Shown here: positions 12,041 to 42,451 of the stretch, piece after piece
Layout: each line of letters begins with the position of its first letter
Position numbering within the stretch: position 1 is the stretch's first letter
Assembly (NCBI GenBank): GCA_000010565.1
Contig: AP009389.1
Span: forward strand, 806,001 to 870,000
Direction of reading: 5' to 3'
From: Pelotomaculum thermopropionicum SI
Lineage (GTDB): Bacteria; Bacillota; Desulfotomaculia; Desulfotomaculales; Pelotomaculaceae
Length of the DNA: 64,000 nucleotides
Made by a program: the position numbers and the translations under genes
The notes under the pieces: model-generated
Seen by the model: the letters and a program-made list of their open reading frames with translations, nothing else
The model's database searches: none
Told to the model about the DNA's origin: nothing

Positions 12041-12351
12041 CCCACCTTATTCAAGGTGGGTTCAGACTGAAGACAAACTACTGCTAGCGTTAAAGCGCCG
12101 GTGGCTGAAAACGCTGCTCTGTTGCGTAGCGCCGTTAGGTGAACTTGGCGAAACTGAGGTTGCGGAATTGGGGGCGCGGACAGGACGTCCGTACCAGCCC
12201 TCACGAACCAGGACGGTGAGTTGAGGGCGTCCCAATTCCGCCCGAAGTGAGCCATAGTTCACCCGGCGCGGAGCATTCAGAGCCAAGCGATTTCAGCCAC
12301 CGGGGAACTTTGCCAACAGCCTGATCCCACCTTATTCCAAGGTGGGTTTTT
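12041..12351 (+). ncRNA. Highly structured non-coding element bounded by matching hairpins
   Basis: The 388 bases between the membrane protein gene and valS hold no credible ORF but fold almost completely. Two copies of the hairpin CCCACCTT-ATTC(C)-AAGGTGGG bound it (12041-12060 and 12326-12346), with the same loop orientation; the right copy is followed by TTTTT. Between them lie nested helices: 12098-12110 with 12291-12303 (13 bp perfect), 12112-12115 with 12286-12289, 12116-12121 with 12278-12283, 12129-12134 with 12264-12269, 12138-12145 with 12256-12263, 12146-12149 with 12251-12254, 12162-12172 with 12231-12241 (11 bp) and 12197-12203 with 12222-12228. Same-orientation end hairpins resemble IS200/IS605-type ends, so a stand-alone HEARO/omega-type RNA or a palindrome-associated element is the best guess. 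It is not a valS attenuator, because valS has its own promoter after the right hairpin. Confidence 0.75.
12326..12351 (+). terminator. Right-end hairpin with T run
   Basis: An 8-bp perfect stem (CCCACCTT/AAGGTGGG) is followed directly by TTTTT. It would terminate any transcript of the structured element and insulate it from valS. Confidence 0.8.
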
Positions 12352-37437: not shown

Positions 37438-37788
37438 TTGGCGATAAATCCGCAGGCGGTGGTGAACATTGCTGTTAAGGCGGCGGAAGACAAAAAGGCT
37501 GAGGGCATAGTTGTCCTGGACATCCGCGAAATATCCATTATAGCTGACTATTTCGTTATTTGCAGCGGCCGTTCCGGCCCCCACGTGCAGGCCGTGGTGG
37601 AGAACATCCAGGAGAAACTGGCGGAAAAAGGCGTTCGTGCCTTGCGCCGGGAGGGTTTCCGGGAAGGCGGCTGGGTGTTGCTTGATTACGGCGATGTGGT
37701 GATCCATGTCTTTCAGGAAGCCGAGCGGCAGTTTTACAACCTTGAACGCCTGTGGGGGGATGCCCAGGTGGTGGCAATTCCAGTTTAA
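37438..37788 (+). CDS. rsfS: Ribosomal silencing factor RsfS
   Basis: 116 residues from the TTG at 37438, with AAGGAGG at the right distance; GTG 37432 overlaps the site. The core DIREISIIADYFVICSG and the later DYGDVVIHVF are diagnostic of the RsfS/DUF143 family. It binds L14 and blocks subunit joining in starvation. The nadD-rsfS order is conserved. It is followed by the T-box region. Confidence 0.96.
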   Translation: MAINPQAVVNIAVKAAEDKKAEGIVVLDIREISIIADYFVICSGRSGPHVQAVVENIQEKLAEKGVRALRREGFREGGWVLLDYGDVVIHVFQEAERQFYNLERLWGDAQVVAIPV

Positions 37789-37791
37789 TGG

Positions 37792-37820
37792 TTGACATAT
37801 GCAGATGTTTACCCTATAAT
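37792..37820 (+). promoter_or_regulatory. SigA promoter of the T-box leader
   Basis: TTGACA, exactly 17 bases, TATAAT: a consensus promoter. It begins four bases after the rsfS stop and would drive the leader, the embedded tRNA, the acyl-CoA synthetase gene and leuS. Confidence 0.92.
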
Positions 37821-37827
37821 TAAACTC

Positions 37828-38153
37828 AGTTTAGCTGGCAAAGCGATGACGAGGAGCAGTAGGCAGTGCAACCCTGCAGAGAGCCGCCGGGAGGTGCAAG
37901 GCGGCGGGCCATGCTGCTGAAACTCGCCTCTGAGTTGCCCGGGGGAAATGTTATTACTCCGGGCCGGGCGCGCCGTTATTGCGTGAAGAGGGTAAAGAGA
38001 TGGGGCTGTGGCGCAGTGGGAGCGCGCTTCCTTGGCATGGAAGAGGCCGCGGGTTCAATCCCCGCCAGCTCCACCAGGAATGTTTTTTCTTTGCCAAAAA
38101 GGGTGGTACCGCGGGAGATAGCCTCTCGTCCCTACAGGGATGAGAGGTTTTTT
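37828..38153 (+). promoter_or_regulatory. T-box riboswitch leader, probably leucine-specific
   Basis: Stem I is canonical: base GGCAA (37837-37841) with TTGCC (37935-37939), AGTA (37858-37861), AGAGAG (37878-37883), distal helix GCCGCC/GGCGGC around GGTGC. The specifier stretch GAAACTCGCC (37919-37928) most likely presents CTC (Leu); a shifted reading gives GCC (Ala). A stem II/III-like CCGTTA...AGAG part follows. The T-box AGGGTGGTACCGCGG is at 38100-38114, and the terminator CCTCTCGTCCCT / AGGGATGAGAGG with T6 ends it (38122-38153). Uncharged tRNA would favour antitermination and expression of the downstream genes, including leuS. A full tRNA-Ala gene lies inside, between stem III and the T-box. 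Confidence 0.93.
38002..38076 (+). tRNA. tRNA-Ala (anticodon GGC) embedded in the T-box leader
   Basis: A complete 75-base cloverleaf. The acceptor stem GGGGCTG/CAGCTCC contains the G3-U70 wobble that defines tRNA-Ala, the discriminator is A, and CCA is encoded. Anticodon stem CTTCC/GGAAG with loop TTGGCAT gives GGC; the T-arm GCGGG-TTCAATC-CCCGC is normal. All identity features are intact, so it is probably functional. It is transcribed with the T-box leader and ends 24 bases before the T-box, followed by a T6 run. Confidence 0.96.
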
Positions 38154-38193
38154 ATTTTGATTTTACGCAAAGTCAGCCTGGGAGGGGGAAAAA

Positions 38194-39858
38194 GTGAGGA
38201 ATTTCGGCAAAATAACCATTGGTGAGCTGCTTGACCGCATTGCGGCCATGTATCCCGATAACGACGCCCTGGTTTACCCGGATCGCGGCCTGAGGTATTC
38301 CTACGAGCAGTTCCGGCAGGTTTGCGACCGGTTTGCCAAAGGGCTTTTGAAGCTGGGCGTGGAAAAGGGCGGGCACGTCGCCATCTGGGCGACAAACGTG
38401 CCCGAATGGGTAATTGCCCAGTTCGGCTGTCCCAGGATAGGAGCCGTACTGGTAACGGTTAATACGAACTATAAGGTATTTGAGCTGGAATACCTGCTAA
38501 AGCAGTCGGATTCCGGCACTTTAATTATGATTGAGGGCACTAAAACCTCCAGTTACATAAAGATGATTTACGAACTCTGCCCGGAATTGAACCATTGCGA
38601 GCCGGGCCGCTTGAATTCGGCCAGGCTGCCTCTTTTGAGAAACGTTATATTCGTTGGAGAAAAGCGCTACCCCGGTATGTTCACCTGGGAAGACGTGATG
38701 AAAATGGGTGAGGACGTTGCAGATGAGGAGCTGGCCGCCCGCAGGGCCTTGCTTGATGCAGACGACGTAATTACCATGATGTACACTTCTGGCACCACCG
38801 GCTTTCCAAAGGGCGTTATGCTTACCCACGACAACCTGATTTCAAACGCCTGCGGGGTGGCGGAGTGCATGAATTTCAGCCAGGCTGACAGGCTATGCAT
38901 CCCGGTGCCTTTCTTCCACTGTTTCGGGTGCTCGCTCGGCACAATGACCTGCGTAGTGTCGGGGGCAACCATGGTTCCGGTGGAAGTATTCGACCCCAGA
39001 AAGGTTTTAGAGGCCGTGGAAAAGGAGCGCTGTACGGCGGTGCACGGGGTGCCCACCATGTTTATTATGGAACTGGAGCTTTTAGAGAGGGAAAAGTTCG
39101 ATACTTCCAGCCTGCGCACGGGGATTATGGCCGGTTCGCCCTGCCCCATTGAAGTGATGAAGAAAGTCATAAAGGTAATGGGAGCAAGGGAGATAACGAT
39201 TACTTACGGCCAGACCGAATCTTCCCCCGCCATAACTATGACCAGAACGGACGATCCCCTTGATTACAGGGTCTCCACCGTGGGGCGGGCCCTGCCGGGT
39301 GTTGAGGTGAAAATAGTAAATCCGGAAACCGGGGAAGAAGTGCCGCGCGGTGTGCAGGGAGAGCTTTGCGCCAGGGGCTACAACATAATGAAGGGTTATT
39401 ACAAAATGCCTGAGGCTACTGCCGCCGCCATTGACAAAGACGGCTGGCTGCATACCGGTGACCTCGCAACGATGGGCGAAAACGGTTACTGCAACATAAC
39501 AGGCAGGCTGAAAGACATGATCATACGCGGCGGGGAAAACATTTACCCCAGGGAAATTGAGGAGTTTCTTTACACCCACCCGAAGGTCAAGGACGTACAG
39601 GTGGTAGGGGTGCCCAGCATAAAGTACGGCGAGGAAGTCATGGCCTTTATTCAGTTAAAAGAGGGGTGCACTCTGACGCAGGAGGAAGTGCAGGAATTCT
39701 GCAAAGGCAAGATTGCCAACTATAAAATACCCCGGTATGTGGCCTTCGTTGACAGCTATCCCTGCACCGCCAGCGGAAAGATTCAAAAGTACAAGCTGCG
39801 CGAAATGGCCATTGAAATGCTCGGCCTGCAGGAGGCCGCAAAGGTTCAGACAGCTTGA
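38194..39858 (+). CDS. Acyl-CoA synthetase (AMP-forming)
   Basis: 554 residues from GTG (GGGAGGGGG site). ANL superfamily: P-loop motif MMYTSGTTGFPKGVMLTH, then YGQTESSPAITMT, the adenylate-binding GWLHTGDLATMGENGY, the hinge GRLKDMIIRGGENIYPREIEE and a C-terminal catalytic-lysine region ASGKIQKYKL. It activates a medium- or branched-chain fatty acid to its CoA ester; the substrate cannot be read from sequence. It is the first gene after the leucine T-box, and no terminator separates it from leuS, so it is likely under the same tRNA control. Confidence 0.92.
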   Translation: MRNFGKITIGELLDRIAAMYPDNDALVYPDRGLRYSYEQFRQVCDRFAKGLLKLGVEKGGHVAIWATNVPEWVIAQFGCPRIGAVLVTVNTNYKVFELEYLLKQSDSGTLIMIEGTKTSSYIKMIYELCPELNHCEPGRLNSARLPLLRNVIFVGEKRYPGMFTWEDVMKMGEDVADEELAARRALLDADDVITMMYTSGTTGFPKGVMLTHDNLISNACGVAECMNFSQADRLCIPVPFFHCFGCSLGTMTCVVSGATMVPVEVFDPRKVLEAVEKERCTAVHGVPTMFIMELELLEREKFDTSSLRTGIMAGSPCPIEVMKKVIKVMGAREITITYGQTESSPAITMTRTDDPLDYRVSTVGRALPGVEVKIVNPETGEEVPRGVQGELCARGYNIMKGYYKMPEATAAAIDKDGWLHTGDLATMGENGYCNITGRLKDMIIRGGENIYPREIEEFLYTHPKVKDVQVVGVPSIKYGEEVMAFIQLKEGCTLTQEEVQEFCKGKIANYKIPRYVAFVDSYPCTASGKIQKYKLREMAIEMLGLQEAAKVQTA

Positions 39859-39967
39859 GAAAGCCTTCCCTTTGTGATAAAATTTTCTGGTGGCGCGGAA
39901 AATACAGAAATAATCTGCATTGGGCGGCCGCCGCCGGGGGTTTTCAGGTGGACAAGGGGGAAATGAA

Positions 39968-42451
39968 TTGAAAGAAAGATACGACTTTAAAGAAATAGAA
40001 GAAAAGTGGCAGGCCCGCTGGGCTGCGCAAGACCTTTACGCGGTACCGGATTATTCAGACCGGCCGAAGTATTACTGCCTTGAAATGTTTCCGTACCCGT
40101 CTGGCAAGCTGCATATGGGCCACGTCAGGAACTACTCCATCGGCGATGTGGTGGCCCGCTTTAAAACCATGCAGGGCTATCACGTGCTTCACCCCATGGG
40201 CTGGGATGCATTCGGGCTGCCCGCCGAAAACGCCGCCATCAAGCACGGCGGGGTACATCCCGCCGAATGGACCCTGGACAATATCGAGAGCATGCGCGCC
40301 CAGCTTAAACAACTGGGCATCAGCTATGACTGGAACAGGGAAGTGGCGACCTGCCATCCGGGCTACTACCGCTGGACGCAGTGGCTTTTCCTGCAGCTTT
40401 TCCATAACGGCCTGGCCTATAAAAAGAAGGCGGCGGTAAACTGGTGCCCCGGCTGCGCTACGGTGCTGGCCAACGAGCAGGTAAAGGACGGGGGCTGCGA
40501 GCGGTGCAAGGCTCCGGTGGAAAAGCGGGAGCTGGAACAGTGGTTCTTTAAAATTACCGACTACGCCGAGCGCCTGCTAAAGGACCTGGAACTGCTGGAA
40601 GGCTGGCCGGAAAAGGTTAAAATCATGCAGGAAAACTGGATCGGCCGCAGCGAGGGTGCGGAAATAGATTTCAAAGTGGAAGGCTCGGACGATATCATAA
40701 CTGTATACACCACGCGGCCGGATACCGTTTTTGGCGTCACCTACATGGTTTTGGCACCGGAACACCCGCTGGTGGAAAAGCTGATTGCCGGTTCAAAGCA
40801 GGAAGCCGAGATTAAGGAATTTATCCGGAAGGTAAGGAATTTGAGGGAGATAGACCGGACCTCCACCGAGGCGGAAAAGGTCGGCATGCCCACCGGGGCG
40901 CACTGCATCAACCCCTTGACCGGGGAAAAGGTGCCCGTCCTGATTGCCAACTACGTCCTGATGGAATACGGCACGGGCTGCGTCATGGGGGTACCCGCCC
41001 ACGACCAGCGGGACTTTGAATTTGCCCGGAAGTACGGCTACCCGATCCGGGTGGTCATTCAGCCGCCGGGCGTCGAACTGGACCCCGCTGCCATGGAAGC
41101 CGCTTATGAGGAAGAGGGCTTTCTGGTCAACTCCGGCCCGTTCAGCGGCATGCCCAACAAGGAGGCAATCAGGGCCATTACCCGCCACCTGGAAGAAAAA
41201 GGCCGGGGAAGGTTCCGCGTAACCTACCGCCTGCGGGACTGGCTCATTTCGCGTCAGCGTTACTGGGGGGCTCCCATCCCCATCATTTACTGCGACCGGT
41301 GTGGCACGGTCCCCGTGCCCGAGTCCGATTTGCCGGTGCTGCTGCCCATGGACGTTGAATTTAAACCTACCGGGCAGTCGCCCCTGGCCGAGTGCCCGGA
41401 ATTCGTAAACGCCGCCTGCCCCAGTTGCGGCGGGCCCGGCAAAAGGGAAACCGACACCATGGACACCTTCATGTGCTCGTCCTGGTATTACTACCGCTAT
41501 ACCAGTCCCAGGGACAACGACGCCCCCTGGGACAGGAACAAGGTGGACTACTGGCTGCCGGTGGACCAGTATATCGGCGGGGTGGAGCACGCCATTCTGC
41601 ACCTTTTGTATTCCCGCTTTTTTACCAAGGTGCTCTACGACCTGAAGCTGGTGAGCAACCTGGAACCGTTTTCCAACCTGCTCACACAGGGCATGGTGTT
41701 AAAGGACGGGGCCAAGATGTCCAAATCCAGAGGCAACGTGGTCAGCCCGGAGGATATCGTGGCCCGTTACGGAGCCGATACCGCCCGGCTGTTTATCCTT
41801 TTTGCCGCTCCGCCGGAGCGCGATCTGGAATGGAGCGACCAGGGGGTGGAGGGGTGCTACCGGTTTTTGAACCGGGTCTGGCGCCTGGTAATGCCCCTGG
41901 CCGGCCTGCTGAAAGAGGCGCCGGCGGCCGTTTCCGGCAAACTGGTGGGGGCAAACCGGGAGATGCGCCGGGTTACCCACAGCACCATAAAAAAGGTAAC
42001 CGAAGACATAAGCGCCCGCTTCAACTTCAACACCGCCGTCAGCGCCATCATGGAACTGGTCAACGCCCTTTACCAGTTCAGGGAAATACCGGAATCTGAC
42101 CGCAACCCGGCGGTGCTGCGGGAAGCGGTGGAGTCCCTGCTGCTTCTGCTGGCCCCCTTTGCGCCCCACATCACCGAAGAGCTGTGGGAGGCCACCGGGC
42201 ACAGGGGCAGCATTCACCTGCAGCCCTGGCCGTCTTACGATCCGGAGGCCATTGCGGAAGACGAAATAACCATCGTGGTGCAAATCAACGGCCGGGTGCG
42301 CGAACGCCTGCTGGTGCCCGCCGGAATAACCCCGCAGGAAATGCAGGACAGGGTAATGAAAGAGCCCAGGGTGATGCGGATGGTTGAAGGGAAAAAAGTT
42401 GCAAAGGTTATAACTGTTCCAGGTAAACTTGTTAACATTGTGATAAAGTAG
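39968..42451 (+). CDS. leuS: Leucyl-tRNA synthetase
   Basis: 827 residues from the TTG at 39968 (AAGGGGG site, product starts [14 protein letters not shown]). Class Ia: HMGH in [16 protein letters not shown] at 583-587, the zinc-like CPGC/CERC pair, the CP1 editing domain ([36 protein letters not shown]) and the anticodon-binding C-terminus. It charges tRNA-Leu, which fits the CTC specifier of the T-box two genes upstream. A strong terminator follows. Confidence 0.98.

What the first reader, a model, noticed from the sequence alone, without database searches (positions are those of the whole stretch)
37828..38153. A complete tRNA-Ala gene lies inside a T-box riboswitch leader
Directly seen: consensus promoter (37792-37820), canonical stem I, then an intact tRNA-Ala(GGC) with the G3-U70 identity pair, then the T-box AGGGTGGTACCGCGG and a terminator. 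The tRNA occupies the place between stem III and the antiterminator. Consequences: RNase P and RNase Z cutting would separate the sensor from the antiterminator, and the tRNA's own 3' ACCA (38073-38076) lies 28 bases before the TGGT bulge (38104-38107) that normally reads an uncharged tRNA, so it could pair in cis. I know of no described T-box with this arrangement, though I cannot search.
Basis: partly seen in the sequence, partly recalled or inferred. Interest (0 to 1): 0.88.

Follow-up and report, generated by a model that had tools for sequence, protein, structure and literature searches.

The report
tRNA gene nested inside T-box riboswitch
In this bacterium and many relatives, an intact alanine tRNA gene sits inside one hairpin of the RNA switch that senses leucine supply, so one transcript carries both a sensor and an often unique tRNA that probably has to be cut out of it.

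Summary
A Leu-specific T-box leader (37837-38136, specifier CUC) before an acyl-CoA ligase gene and leuS contains an intact tRNA-Ala(GGC), 38002-38076. The tRNA does not lie between stem III and antiterminator; it forms the end of stem III, replacing its loop. Of 127 loci with over 400 nt downstream, 126 have a LeuS or ligase homologue there. Stem III pairing exceeds permuted controls; 78 distinct embedded tRNAs keep all acceptor, T- and anticodon-stem pairs and G3:U70. In 29 of 33 carriers of the order the embedded gene is the only tRNA-Ala(GGC) that a narrow pattern finds. Relatives show reciprocal loss: T-boxes with decayed or no tRNA, and leuS-linked tRNA without T-box. Best reading: a nested gene transcribed from the leuS promoter whether or not the T-box terminates; the T-box does not need it. 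Cis pairing of ACCA with the T-box is unsupported. No description found in the open-access library searched; two key surveys were not held. Outside Bacillota the T-box assignment rests mostly on motifs. New variant of a known kind.

The parts
37792..37820 (+). sigma-70 type promoter TTGACA-17-TATAAT, upstream of leader, tRNA and operon
   Evidence: 12 of 12 matches, only promoter-like site in 37700-38300
37837..38136 (+). T-box leader (Rfam RF00230), Leu-specific, interrupted in stem III by the tRNA gene
   Evidence: 125 bits, cut-off 93, E 2.7e-27, full model
37923..37925 (+). specifier codon CUC (Leu) in stem I
   Evidence: one tRNA-Leu(GAG) ending ACCA in the genome; CUC motif found in 126 of 135 loci with at least 180 nt upstream
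37973..37978 (+). CCGTTA of stem IIA/B
   Evidence: Rfam alignment
37991..38000 (+). stem III, 5' strand; AAGAG before it fits the RRRxG motif
   Evidence: motif from PMC7583486 (passages)
38002..38076 (+). tRNA-Ala(GGC), anticodon 38034-38036, A(-2)U(-1) before it, CCA encoded
38086..38095 (+). stem III, 3' strand, followed by AA
38100..38114 (+). T-box sequence AGGGTGGTACCGCGG; bulge TGGT at 38104-38107
38120..38149 (+). intrinsic terminator hairpin, T tail follows
38194..39858 (+). acyl-CoA ligase gene (fatty acid CoA ligase family), first gene of the operon
   Evidence: NF009233 806 bits, just under its cut-off of 832
39920..42451 (+). leuS, leucine--tRNA ligase
   Evidence: TIGR00396 1137 bits, cut-off 548

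Best explanation
A tRNA-Ala(GGC) gene is nested in the leader of a leucine T-box riboswitch, as the cap of stem III. Shown from sequence: one promoter lies upstream of both; the T-box parts (stem I with CUC, stem II, IIA/B, stem III, antiterminator, terminator) and the tRNA are each intact; the tRNA and stem III show the pair conservation of parts under selection; the tRNA lies before the terminator. Inferred: RNA polymerase transcribes the tRNA whether the T-box terminates or reads through, so tRNA supply does not depend on the leucine decision while leuS does. The tRNA folds as its own domain on stem III, so the discriminator forms as in an ordinary T-box. The tRNA is then cut out by RNase P at its 5' end and by 3' processing enzymes, mostly after the termination decision. 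The gene is kept because it is usually the only tRNA-Ala(GGC); once another copy exists, it can decay, and the T-box can be lost independently.
For: A pattern without CCA matched 66 of 398 phylum genomes, 65 with Ala-like 3' halves and one not a tRNA, judged by eye. Downstream: LeuS 104 and ligase 22 of 139 loci; of the other 13, 12 have under 400 nt and one is L109; 96 of the 104 LeuS lie within 300 nt, 8 at 407-1011 nt. tRNA: 1326 of 1326 acceptor, T- and anticodon-stem cells canonical in 78 distinct tRNAs (D arm not tested); G3:U70 and A73 in 139 of 139, U(-1) in 112. Stem III: anchored helix mean 5.0 bp against 2.66 +/- 0.12 with permuted partners. Promoter of at least 9/12 upstream of stem I in 115 of 126, between specifier and tRNA in 2 of 126. 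Sole copy: 29 of 33 carriers of the order by a narrow pattern. Separable parts: decayed or absent tRNA in 12 leaders, 11 of them over the Rfam T-box cut-off; tRNA before leuS without an Rfam T-box in 9 of 30 chosen genomes. 10 of those 12 genomes have a tRNA-Ala(GGC) elsewhere.
Against: No expression data: co-transcription and processing are inferred. The window's own genome has a second, free-standing tRNA-Ala(GGC), so here the embedded copy may be dispensable. G010 and G012 have relics, but no other Ala-GGC gene was found in their drafts. The copy-number contrast used a looser pattern for the 12 than for the 33; with the same narrow pattern it is 7 of 12 against 2 of 33 (Fisher p 5e-4; 1.2e-6 with the mixed patterns), and kinship is not corrected. 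Folding does not give the cloverleaf: T-stem pairs about 0.18, anticodon stem 0.13-0.15, and the whole-leader minimum mispairs the tRNA. 43 of 131 flank pairs have under 4 bp by the strict stem III rule. Relic similarity is clear in L229 and L251, moderate in L214, L215, L247, absent in L216 and L217 alone; the shuffle test is lenient, since the tRNA-free L254 also reached 0 of 1000. L216's T-box is damaged too. Outside the core group the T-box is diverged: 8 of 18 tested carriers and 4 of 5 further ones miss the Rfam cut-off.
Confidence: 0.8

Rival explanations
1. The embedded tRNA also works as a processing switch: RNase P and 3' enzymes cut it out of the read-through RNA, which separates the tRNA-Leu-bound sensor from the leuS mRNA, recycles the sensor's tRNA and fixes the 5' end and life time of the mRNA. 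tRNA maturation and LeuS output would then be linked. This can be true on top of the best explanation.
For: The tRNA lies between sensor and antiterminator, so cutting must separate them (sequence). U(-1), found in 112 of 139, is called optimal for the cleavage step, and A(-2)U(-1), as in the window, optimal for E. coli RNase P in PMC9433436 (section 6 read).
Against: T-boxes persist after loss of the tRNA, so this is not required. Stem III is not longer with a tRNA (median 6 bp, n=130) than without (5-7 bp, n=5), so there is no sign of selection to hold cut halves together.
Confidence: 0.25
2. The tRNA is a regulatory part of the switch: its ACCA pairs in cis with the UGGU bulge, or its charging is sensed, so that alanine as well as leucine status sets read-through.
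For: tRNA-Ala ends in ACCA, complementary to TGGT at 38104-38107; both parts are conserved together in carriers.
Against: tRNA-Leu(GAG) also ends in ACCA, so the bulge is explained by the cognate ligand. Cis pairing probability 0.0. The CCA-to-T-box gap ranges from 10 to 31 nt. The anticodon GGC does not match the specifier CUC. Leaders with relic or missing tRNA keep the T-box.
Confidence: 0.07
3. A free-standing tRNA gene with its own promoter happens to lie in the leader, or the arrangement is an assembly or binning artefact.
For: Some carriers are single metagenome bins whose label disagrees with their place in the LeuS tree, for example L076, named Desulfovibrio.
Against: No internal promoter above chance. 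Eleven records titled as named strains, not as MAGs, carry the pattern, for example Desulfofundulus australicus, Syntrophomonas palmitatica and Carboxydothermus islandicus. The window genome is a single contig. tRNA type and downstream gene are nearly constant.
Confidence: 0.03

Closest known systems
Transcriptional T-box riboswitch (Rfam RF00230), leuS type
   Same: Stem I with Leu specifier, stem II, IIA/B, RRRxG-stem III-AA, UGGU bulge, antiterminator and terminator, in front of a leuS operon.
   Different: The stem III loop is a whole tRNA gene for another amino acid. The review PMC7583486 (passages seen) speaks of curious insertions in every domain, but the passages seen name no tRNA gene.
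tRNA genes co-transcribed with an mRNA, such as the E. coli thrU-tyrU-glyT-thrT-tufB operon (recalled, from no call)
   Same: One transcript gives a tRNA and an mRNA; excision by tRNA processing enzymes.
   Different: There the tRNAs are neighbours in the operon; here the tRNA is nested inside a structural element of a riboswitch, upstream of its terminator.
tRNA-Ala in or beside rRNA operons (seen in L198 between 16S and 23S and in L179 after 5S)
   Same: tRNA-Ala(GGC) next to other stable or leader RNA.
   Different: Here the carrier is a regulated T-box leader.

Membership tests
T-box riboswitch | Match to the family covariance model above the curated cut-off | tested here: met
   Window 125 bits against 93. 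Relatives: 11 of 18, 3 of 3 order carriers and 1 of 5 Chloroflexota-side carriers, 10 of 18 carriers; 6 of this genome's own 12 T-boxes are also under the cut-off
T-box riboswitch | Specifier codon that fits the downstream gene and a tRNA of the genome | tested here: met
   CUC, leuS downstream, one tRNA-Leu(GAG) gene
T-box riboswitch | UGGN bulge complementary to the NCCA end of the cognate tRNA | tested here: met
   TGGT at 38104 and tRNA-Leu(GAG) ending ACCA
T-box riboswitch | RRRxG-stem III-AA | tested here: met
   AAGAG, 10-bp stem III, AA in the window; AA in 122 of 131 flank pairs, stem III above permuted control
T-box riboswitch | Alternative antiterminator and intrinsic terminator | tested here: met
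   Rfam antiterminator, terminator 38120-38149; T run of 4 or more in 122 of 134 loci with enough sequence
T-box riboswitch | Read-through raised by uncharged tRNA-Leu | not testable with these tools
   needs in vitro transcription or a reporter assay
functional tRNA-Ala gene | tRNA fold, GGC anticodon, G3:U70, A73, CCA | tested here: met
   relatives; all tested stem pairs canonical in 78 distinct relatives, D arm not tested. Plain energy folding does not give the cloverleaf
functional tRNA-Ala gene | Mature tRNA is made and charged | not testable with these tools
   needs northern blot, tRNA-seq, acid gels

The most novel reading that the evidence does not exclude
A riboswitch whose own body contains a second, excisable functional RNA: tRNA processing cuts the switch in two after (or even during) its decision, so that RNase P and 3' processing set the fate of the leuS mRNA and of the bound tRNA-Leu, and the cell's often only tRNA-Ala(GGC) is bound to leuS transcription. 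It is an old RNA-in-RNA gene, lost piecemeal in several lineages.
Probability: 0.22. Interest if true: 0.9.

Novelty: new variant of a known kind. Interest (0 to 1): 0.78.

Why it matters
It suggests that a highly structured riboswitch can host a whole second RNA gene in one hairpin without loss of its sensing core, and that this has been kept across many genera of Bacillota and, by motif, in Thermomicrobiota/Chloroflexota and Armatimonadota. It ties an often unique decoding tRNA to the promoter of another amino acid's synthetase. It makes open questions testable: whether the end of stem III is free of function in T-boxes, how RNase P treats a precursor clamped by a leader-trailer helix, and what happens to a riboswitch that is cut after deciding. 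TBDB paired T-boxes with tRNAs by anticodon (passages seen), a procedure not aimed at tRNAs inside the leader.

Tried and rejected
Chance: rejected by the reversed-pattern control (0 of 113) and the constant tRNA type. Assembly artefact: rejected by independent strains. Cis ACCA-UGGU sensing: no support; relics argue against it. Internal promoter: at chance level. Other tRNA types in this arrangement: none among the hits apart from L109, L025 and G133, which do not look like T-boxes or tRNAs of this kind; tRNAs in other places of T-box leaders were not searched. A first stem III test that took the longest helix anywhere gave a weak contrast (7.0 against 5.9) because of G-U pairs; an anchored test replaced it. 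Whole-leader folding was uninformative (z -1.76; the segment alone z +0.72). The strict pattern undercounts: of the 30 Ala-GGC loci fetched, 19 lacked the strict T-box string; 18 were put through Rfam and 11 proved to be T-boxes with variant strings, the 19th, L185, too, and G018 is another. In one search, 12 of 30 leaders showed neither T-box nor tRNA within 1.5 kb of leuS (one, L222, because its contig starts inside leuS). Five were settled from further upstream (G098, G018, G010, G054, G051); seven stay open, among them G070, which has an Rfam T-box there. These seven and L243 (tRNA about 0.9 kb upstream of leuS) are the eight rows of unsettled state left out of the change counts. One search printed nothing because of a wrong search string; it was repeated.

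Full report
WHAT IS THERE. The window lies in a 3,025,375-base single-contig genome; its clade in a LeuS tree includes Pelotomaculum bins. At 37792-37820 is a 12-of-12 sigma-70 type promoter, the only promoter-like site between 37700 and 38300. Rfam's T-box model matches 37837-38136 over its full length at 125 bits (cut-off 93), with the tRNA as an unmodelled insertion. ARAGORN calls tRNA-Ala(GGC) at 38002-38076. The specifier reads CUC (37923-37925). Among the tRNA loci fetched from this genome there is one tRNA-Leu(GAG), ending in ACCA. Downstream are an acyl-CoA ligase gene (38194-39858) and leuS (39920-42451; TIGR00396 at 1137 bits). So this is a leucine T-box with an alanine tRNA inside. 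Of 12 T-boxes found in the genome, it is the only one with a tRNA.

WHERE EXACTLY. The stretches 37991-38000 and 38086-38095 form a 10-bp helix (P 0.87-0.96), preceded by AAGAG and followed by AA. This fits the RRRxG-stem III-AA motif described in PMC7583486 (passages seen). In five relatives with a T-box but no tRNA, a like helix of 5-7 bp is closed by a loop of 4-6 bases, for example GGTAAA-ACGTC-TTTACC in L228. The tRNA is therefore the apical part of stem III.

CONSERVATION. I searched GTDB contigs with a pattern that asks only for any tRNA T-arm, an encoded CCA, 5-35 bases, and a T-box sequence. ARAGORN found a tRNA-Ala in 116 of the 120: 115 GGC and one CGC. The CGC case, L109, is a chance hit in a GC-rich hairpin without leuS. 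The four without are L021 and L025 (cut by the locus edge; L025 does not look like a T-box), L044 (5' half of the tRNA missing) and L110 (run of N). With the 30 loci, and a pattern widened to T-box variants, 139 complete tRNAs were measured: 138 Ala-GGC and L109; all 139 have G3:U70 and A73, and 112 have U at -1, where T makes up about 18% of the upstream bases. A CUC motif was found by one regular expression in 126 of the 135 with at least 180 bases upstream. Of the nine misses, read by eye, five (L016, L042, L086, L091, L093) show CUC with other bases before it, L071 reads differently, and L092, L107 and L109 lack a recognisable stem I. The next recognised gene is LeuS (104) or the ligase (22) in 126 of 139; of the other 13, 12 have under 400 bases left and one is L109. 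96 of the 104 LeuS homologues begin within 300 bases of the T-box; eight lie at 407-1011 bases, so another gene may lie between. For the ligase cases I did not check that leuS follows.

HOW GOOD ARE THE T-BOXES OF THE RELATIVES. Rfam's cut-off was reached by 11 of 18 (the other seven have no T-box), by the order carriers L180, L185 and L186, and by 10 of 18 carriers chosen for breadth. The eight that miss it are the Thermomicrobia, Caldisericota, Armatimonadota and Actinomycetota loci of that set; 4 of 5 carriers fetched also miss it. They show CUC motifs and the T-box string, so I read them as diverged T-boxes, but there the assignment rests on motifs. The cut-off is high: 6 of the window genome's own 12 T-boxes are under it.

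PREVALENCE. With the strict pattern, 33 of 113 genomes of the order have it, and the reversed-pattern control has none. With a looser pattern, 66 of 398 genomes across the phylum match: by eye 65 with tRNA-Ala-like 3' halves and one, G133, that is not a tRNA. In the phylum of the genome that holds L035 (titled Thermomicrobiales), 16 of 251, all Ala-like by eye; five were fetched and all five carry Ala-GGC. Titles also name Armatimonadota, Coprothermobacterota, Caldisericota and Actinomycetota bins, which rest on one to four contigs each and could be misbinned. These counts are lower bounds (see Tried and rejected).

SELECTION ON BOTH PARTS. In 78 distinct embedded tRNAs all 1326 acceptor, T- and anticodon-stem cells are canonical pairs, with many two-sided changes; the D arm was not tested. 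Stem III around the tRNA: the helix anchored at the conserved flanks averages 5.0 bp over 131 distinct flank pairs (the window included), against 2.66 (sd 0.12, highest 3.17) in 500 partner permutations and 1.58 with shuffled letters. Among the 88 with at least 4 bp, pairs 2-5 show GC/AU/CG exchanges; 43 of 131 had under 4 bp by this strict rule. A promoter of at least 9/12 lies upstream of stem I in 115 of 126 loci, but between specifier and tRNA in only 2 of 126, where shuffles give 2.4.

EVOLUTIONARY SERIES. I took LeuS loci from 30 genomes of the order that lacked the strict pattern and, for 11 of them, more upstream DNA. Three other states appear. (R) T-box with a decayed tRNA: L214-L217, L229, L247 and L251. 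Six of these seven pass Rfam's T-box cut-off; L216 does not and has lost part of stem I and of the T-box string. In L229 and L251 the first 13 bases of the tRNA and, by eye, part of its 3' end remain (alignment score reached by 1 and 0 of 1000 shuffles); L214, L215 and L247 are moderate (21, 9 and 13 of 1000); L216 and L217 are not significant alone (408 and 790) and are counted by likeness to their neighbours. The test is lenient: of four tRNA-free leaders scored as controls, L254 also reached 0 of 1000 (the others 265, 382 and 928). (T) compact T-box with a normal stem III loop: L228, L230, L240, L253, L254, all over the Rfam cut-off. (N) tRNA-Ala(GGC) before leuS without a T-box by string search or Rfam, with a promoter-like sequence directly upstream by eye: 9 of the 30. 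On a LeuS tree of 128 rows (FastTree, root unknown, some long branches) tRNA presence needs at least 4 changes and T-box presence 2, among rows of known state. T-box and tRNA are thus separable in both directions.

WHY THE tRNA STAYS. In 29 of the 33 carrier genomes the embedded gene is the only match to a narrow Ala-GGC pattern; two (the window genome and G013) have a second copy, and in two the narrow pattern misses even the embedded one (positions compared by eye). Of 32 carrier genomes reached through loci, a looser pattern matches 28, and in each the one tRNA-Ala-like match lies at the embedded gene (positions compared by eye); two of the 28 have one further match that does not look like tRNA-Ala. 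At least six of these 32 are the same genomes as. By contrast, 10 of 12 R or T genomes have an Ala-GGC gene elsewhere. That count used looser means than the 33; with the narrow pattern on both sides it is 7 of 12 against 2 of 33 (Fisher p 5e-4; 1.2e-6 for the mixed count). Kinship is not corrected. G010 and G012 are exceptions: relic tRNA, no other copy found in the drafts. The window genome itself is in the double state, so here the embedded copy may be on its way to redundancy.

MECHANISM. Because the tRNA precedes the terminator, terminated and read-through RNAs both contain it (sequence). I infer that the tRNA is made from the leuS promoter in both cases and cut out, while the T-box decides about leuS as usual. 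The window's A(-2)U(-1) before the tRNA is called optimal for E. coli RNase P in PMC9433436 (abstract and section 6 read); the same paper reports that pairing of leader with the 3' RCCA inhibits cleavage, so the clamped precursor may be cut slowly. The decision needs only about 75 more bases of transcription after the CCA, so I expect it to precede cutting, but this is not shown. Whether cutting later shapes the leuS mRNA is open. Cis pairing of the tRNA's ACCA with the bulge has no support.

LITERATURE. Ten searches of the held open-access library listed no paper whose title or abstract start describes a tRNA gene in a T-box leader. I saw search listings, and passages of PMC2494555, PMC7583486, PMC7778990 and PMC2965389. 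Two main T-box surveys are not held, so prior mention cannot be excluded.

VERDICT. Real, widely conserved, and a new variant of a known kind: a leuS T-box riboswitch that carries a nested tRNA-Ala(GGC) gene as the end of stem III.

Noticed in passing
window 12122-12276 +: Rfam TwoAYGGAY RNA candidate (54.9 bits, cut-off 43).
   Followed up: no
L024, L037, L039 (leuS leaders of Coprothermobacterota and Caldisericota bins): Stem I of these leaders looks very short and lacks the AGAGAG distal part near the tRNA, although specifier motif, T-box string and embedded tRNA are kept; L039 misses the Rfam cut-off.
   Followed up: partly
L231-L236, L238, L239, L241 and L206-L208: tRNA-Ala(GGC) with a promoter-like sequence before it and a terminator-like hairpin after it (by eye) upstream of leuS, without T-box: a likely remnant of the nested state.
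   Followed up: yes
L251 and L229 (genomes G010, G012): T-box leaders with tRNA relics, while no intact tRNA-Ala(GGC) was found elsewhere in these drafts.
   Followed up: partly
G000:C1:1525789-1525861 -: Second, free-standing tRNA-Ala(GGC) of the window's genome, of a different sequence type.
   Followed up: partly
L109: Rokuibacteriota tRNA-Ala(CGC) followed by a GC-rich hairpin that imitates the T-box string; chance hit.
   Followed up: yes
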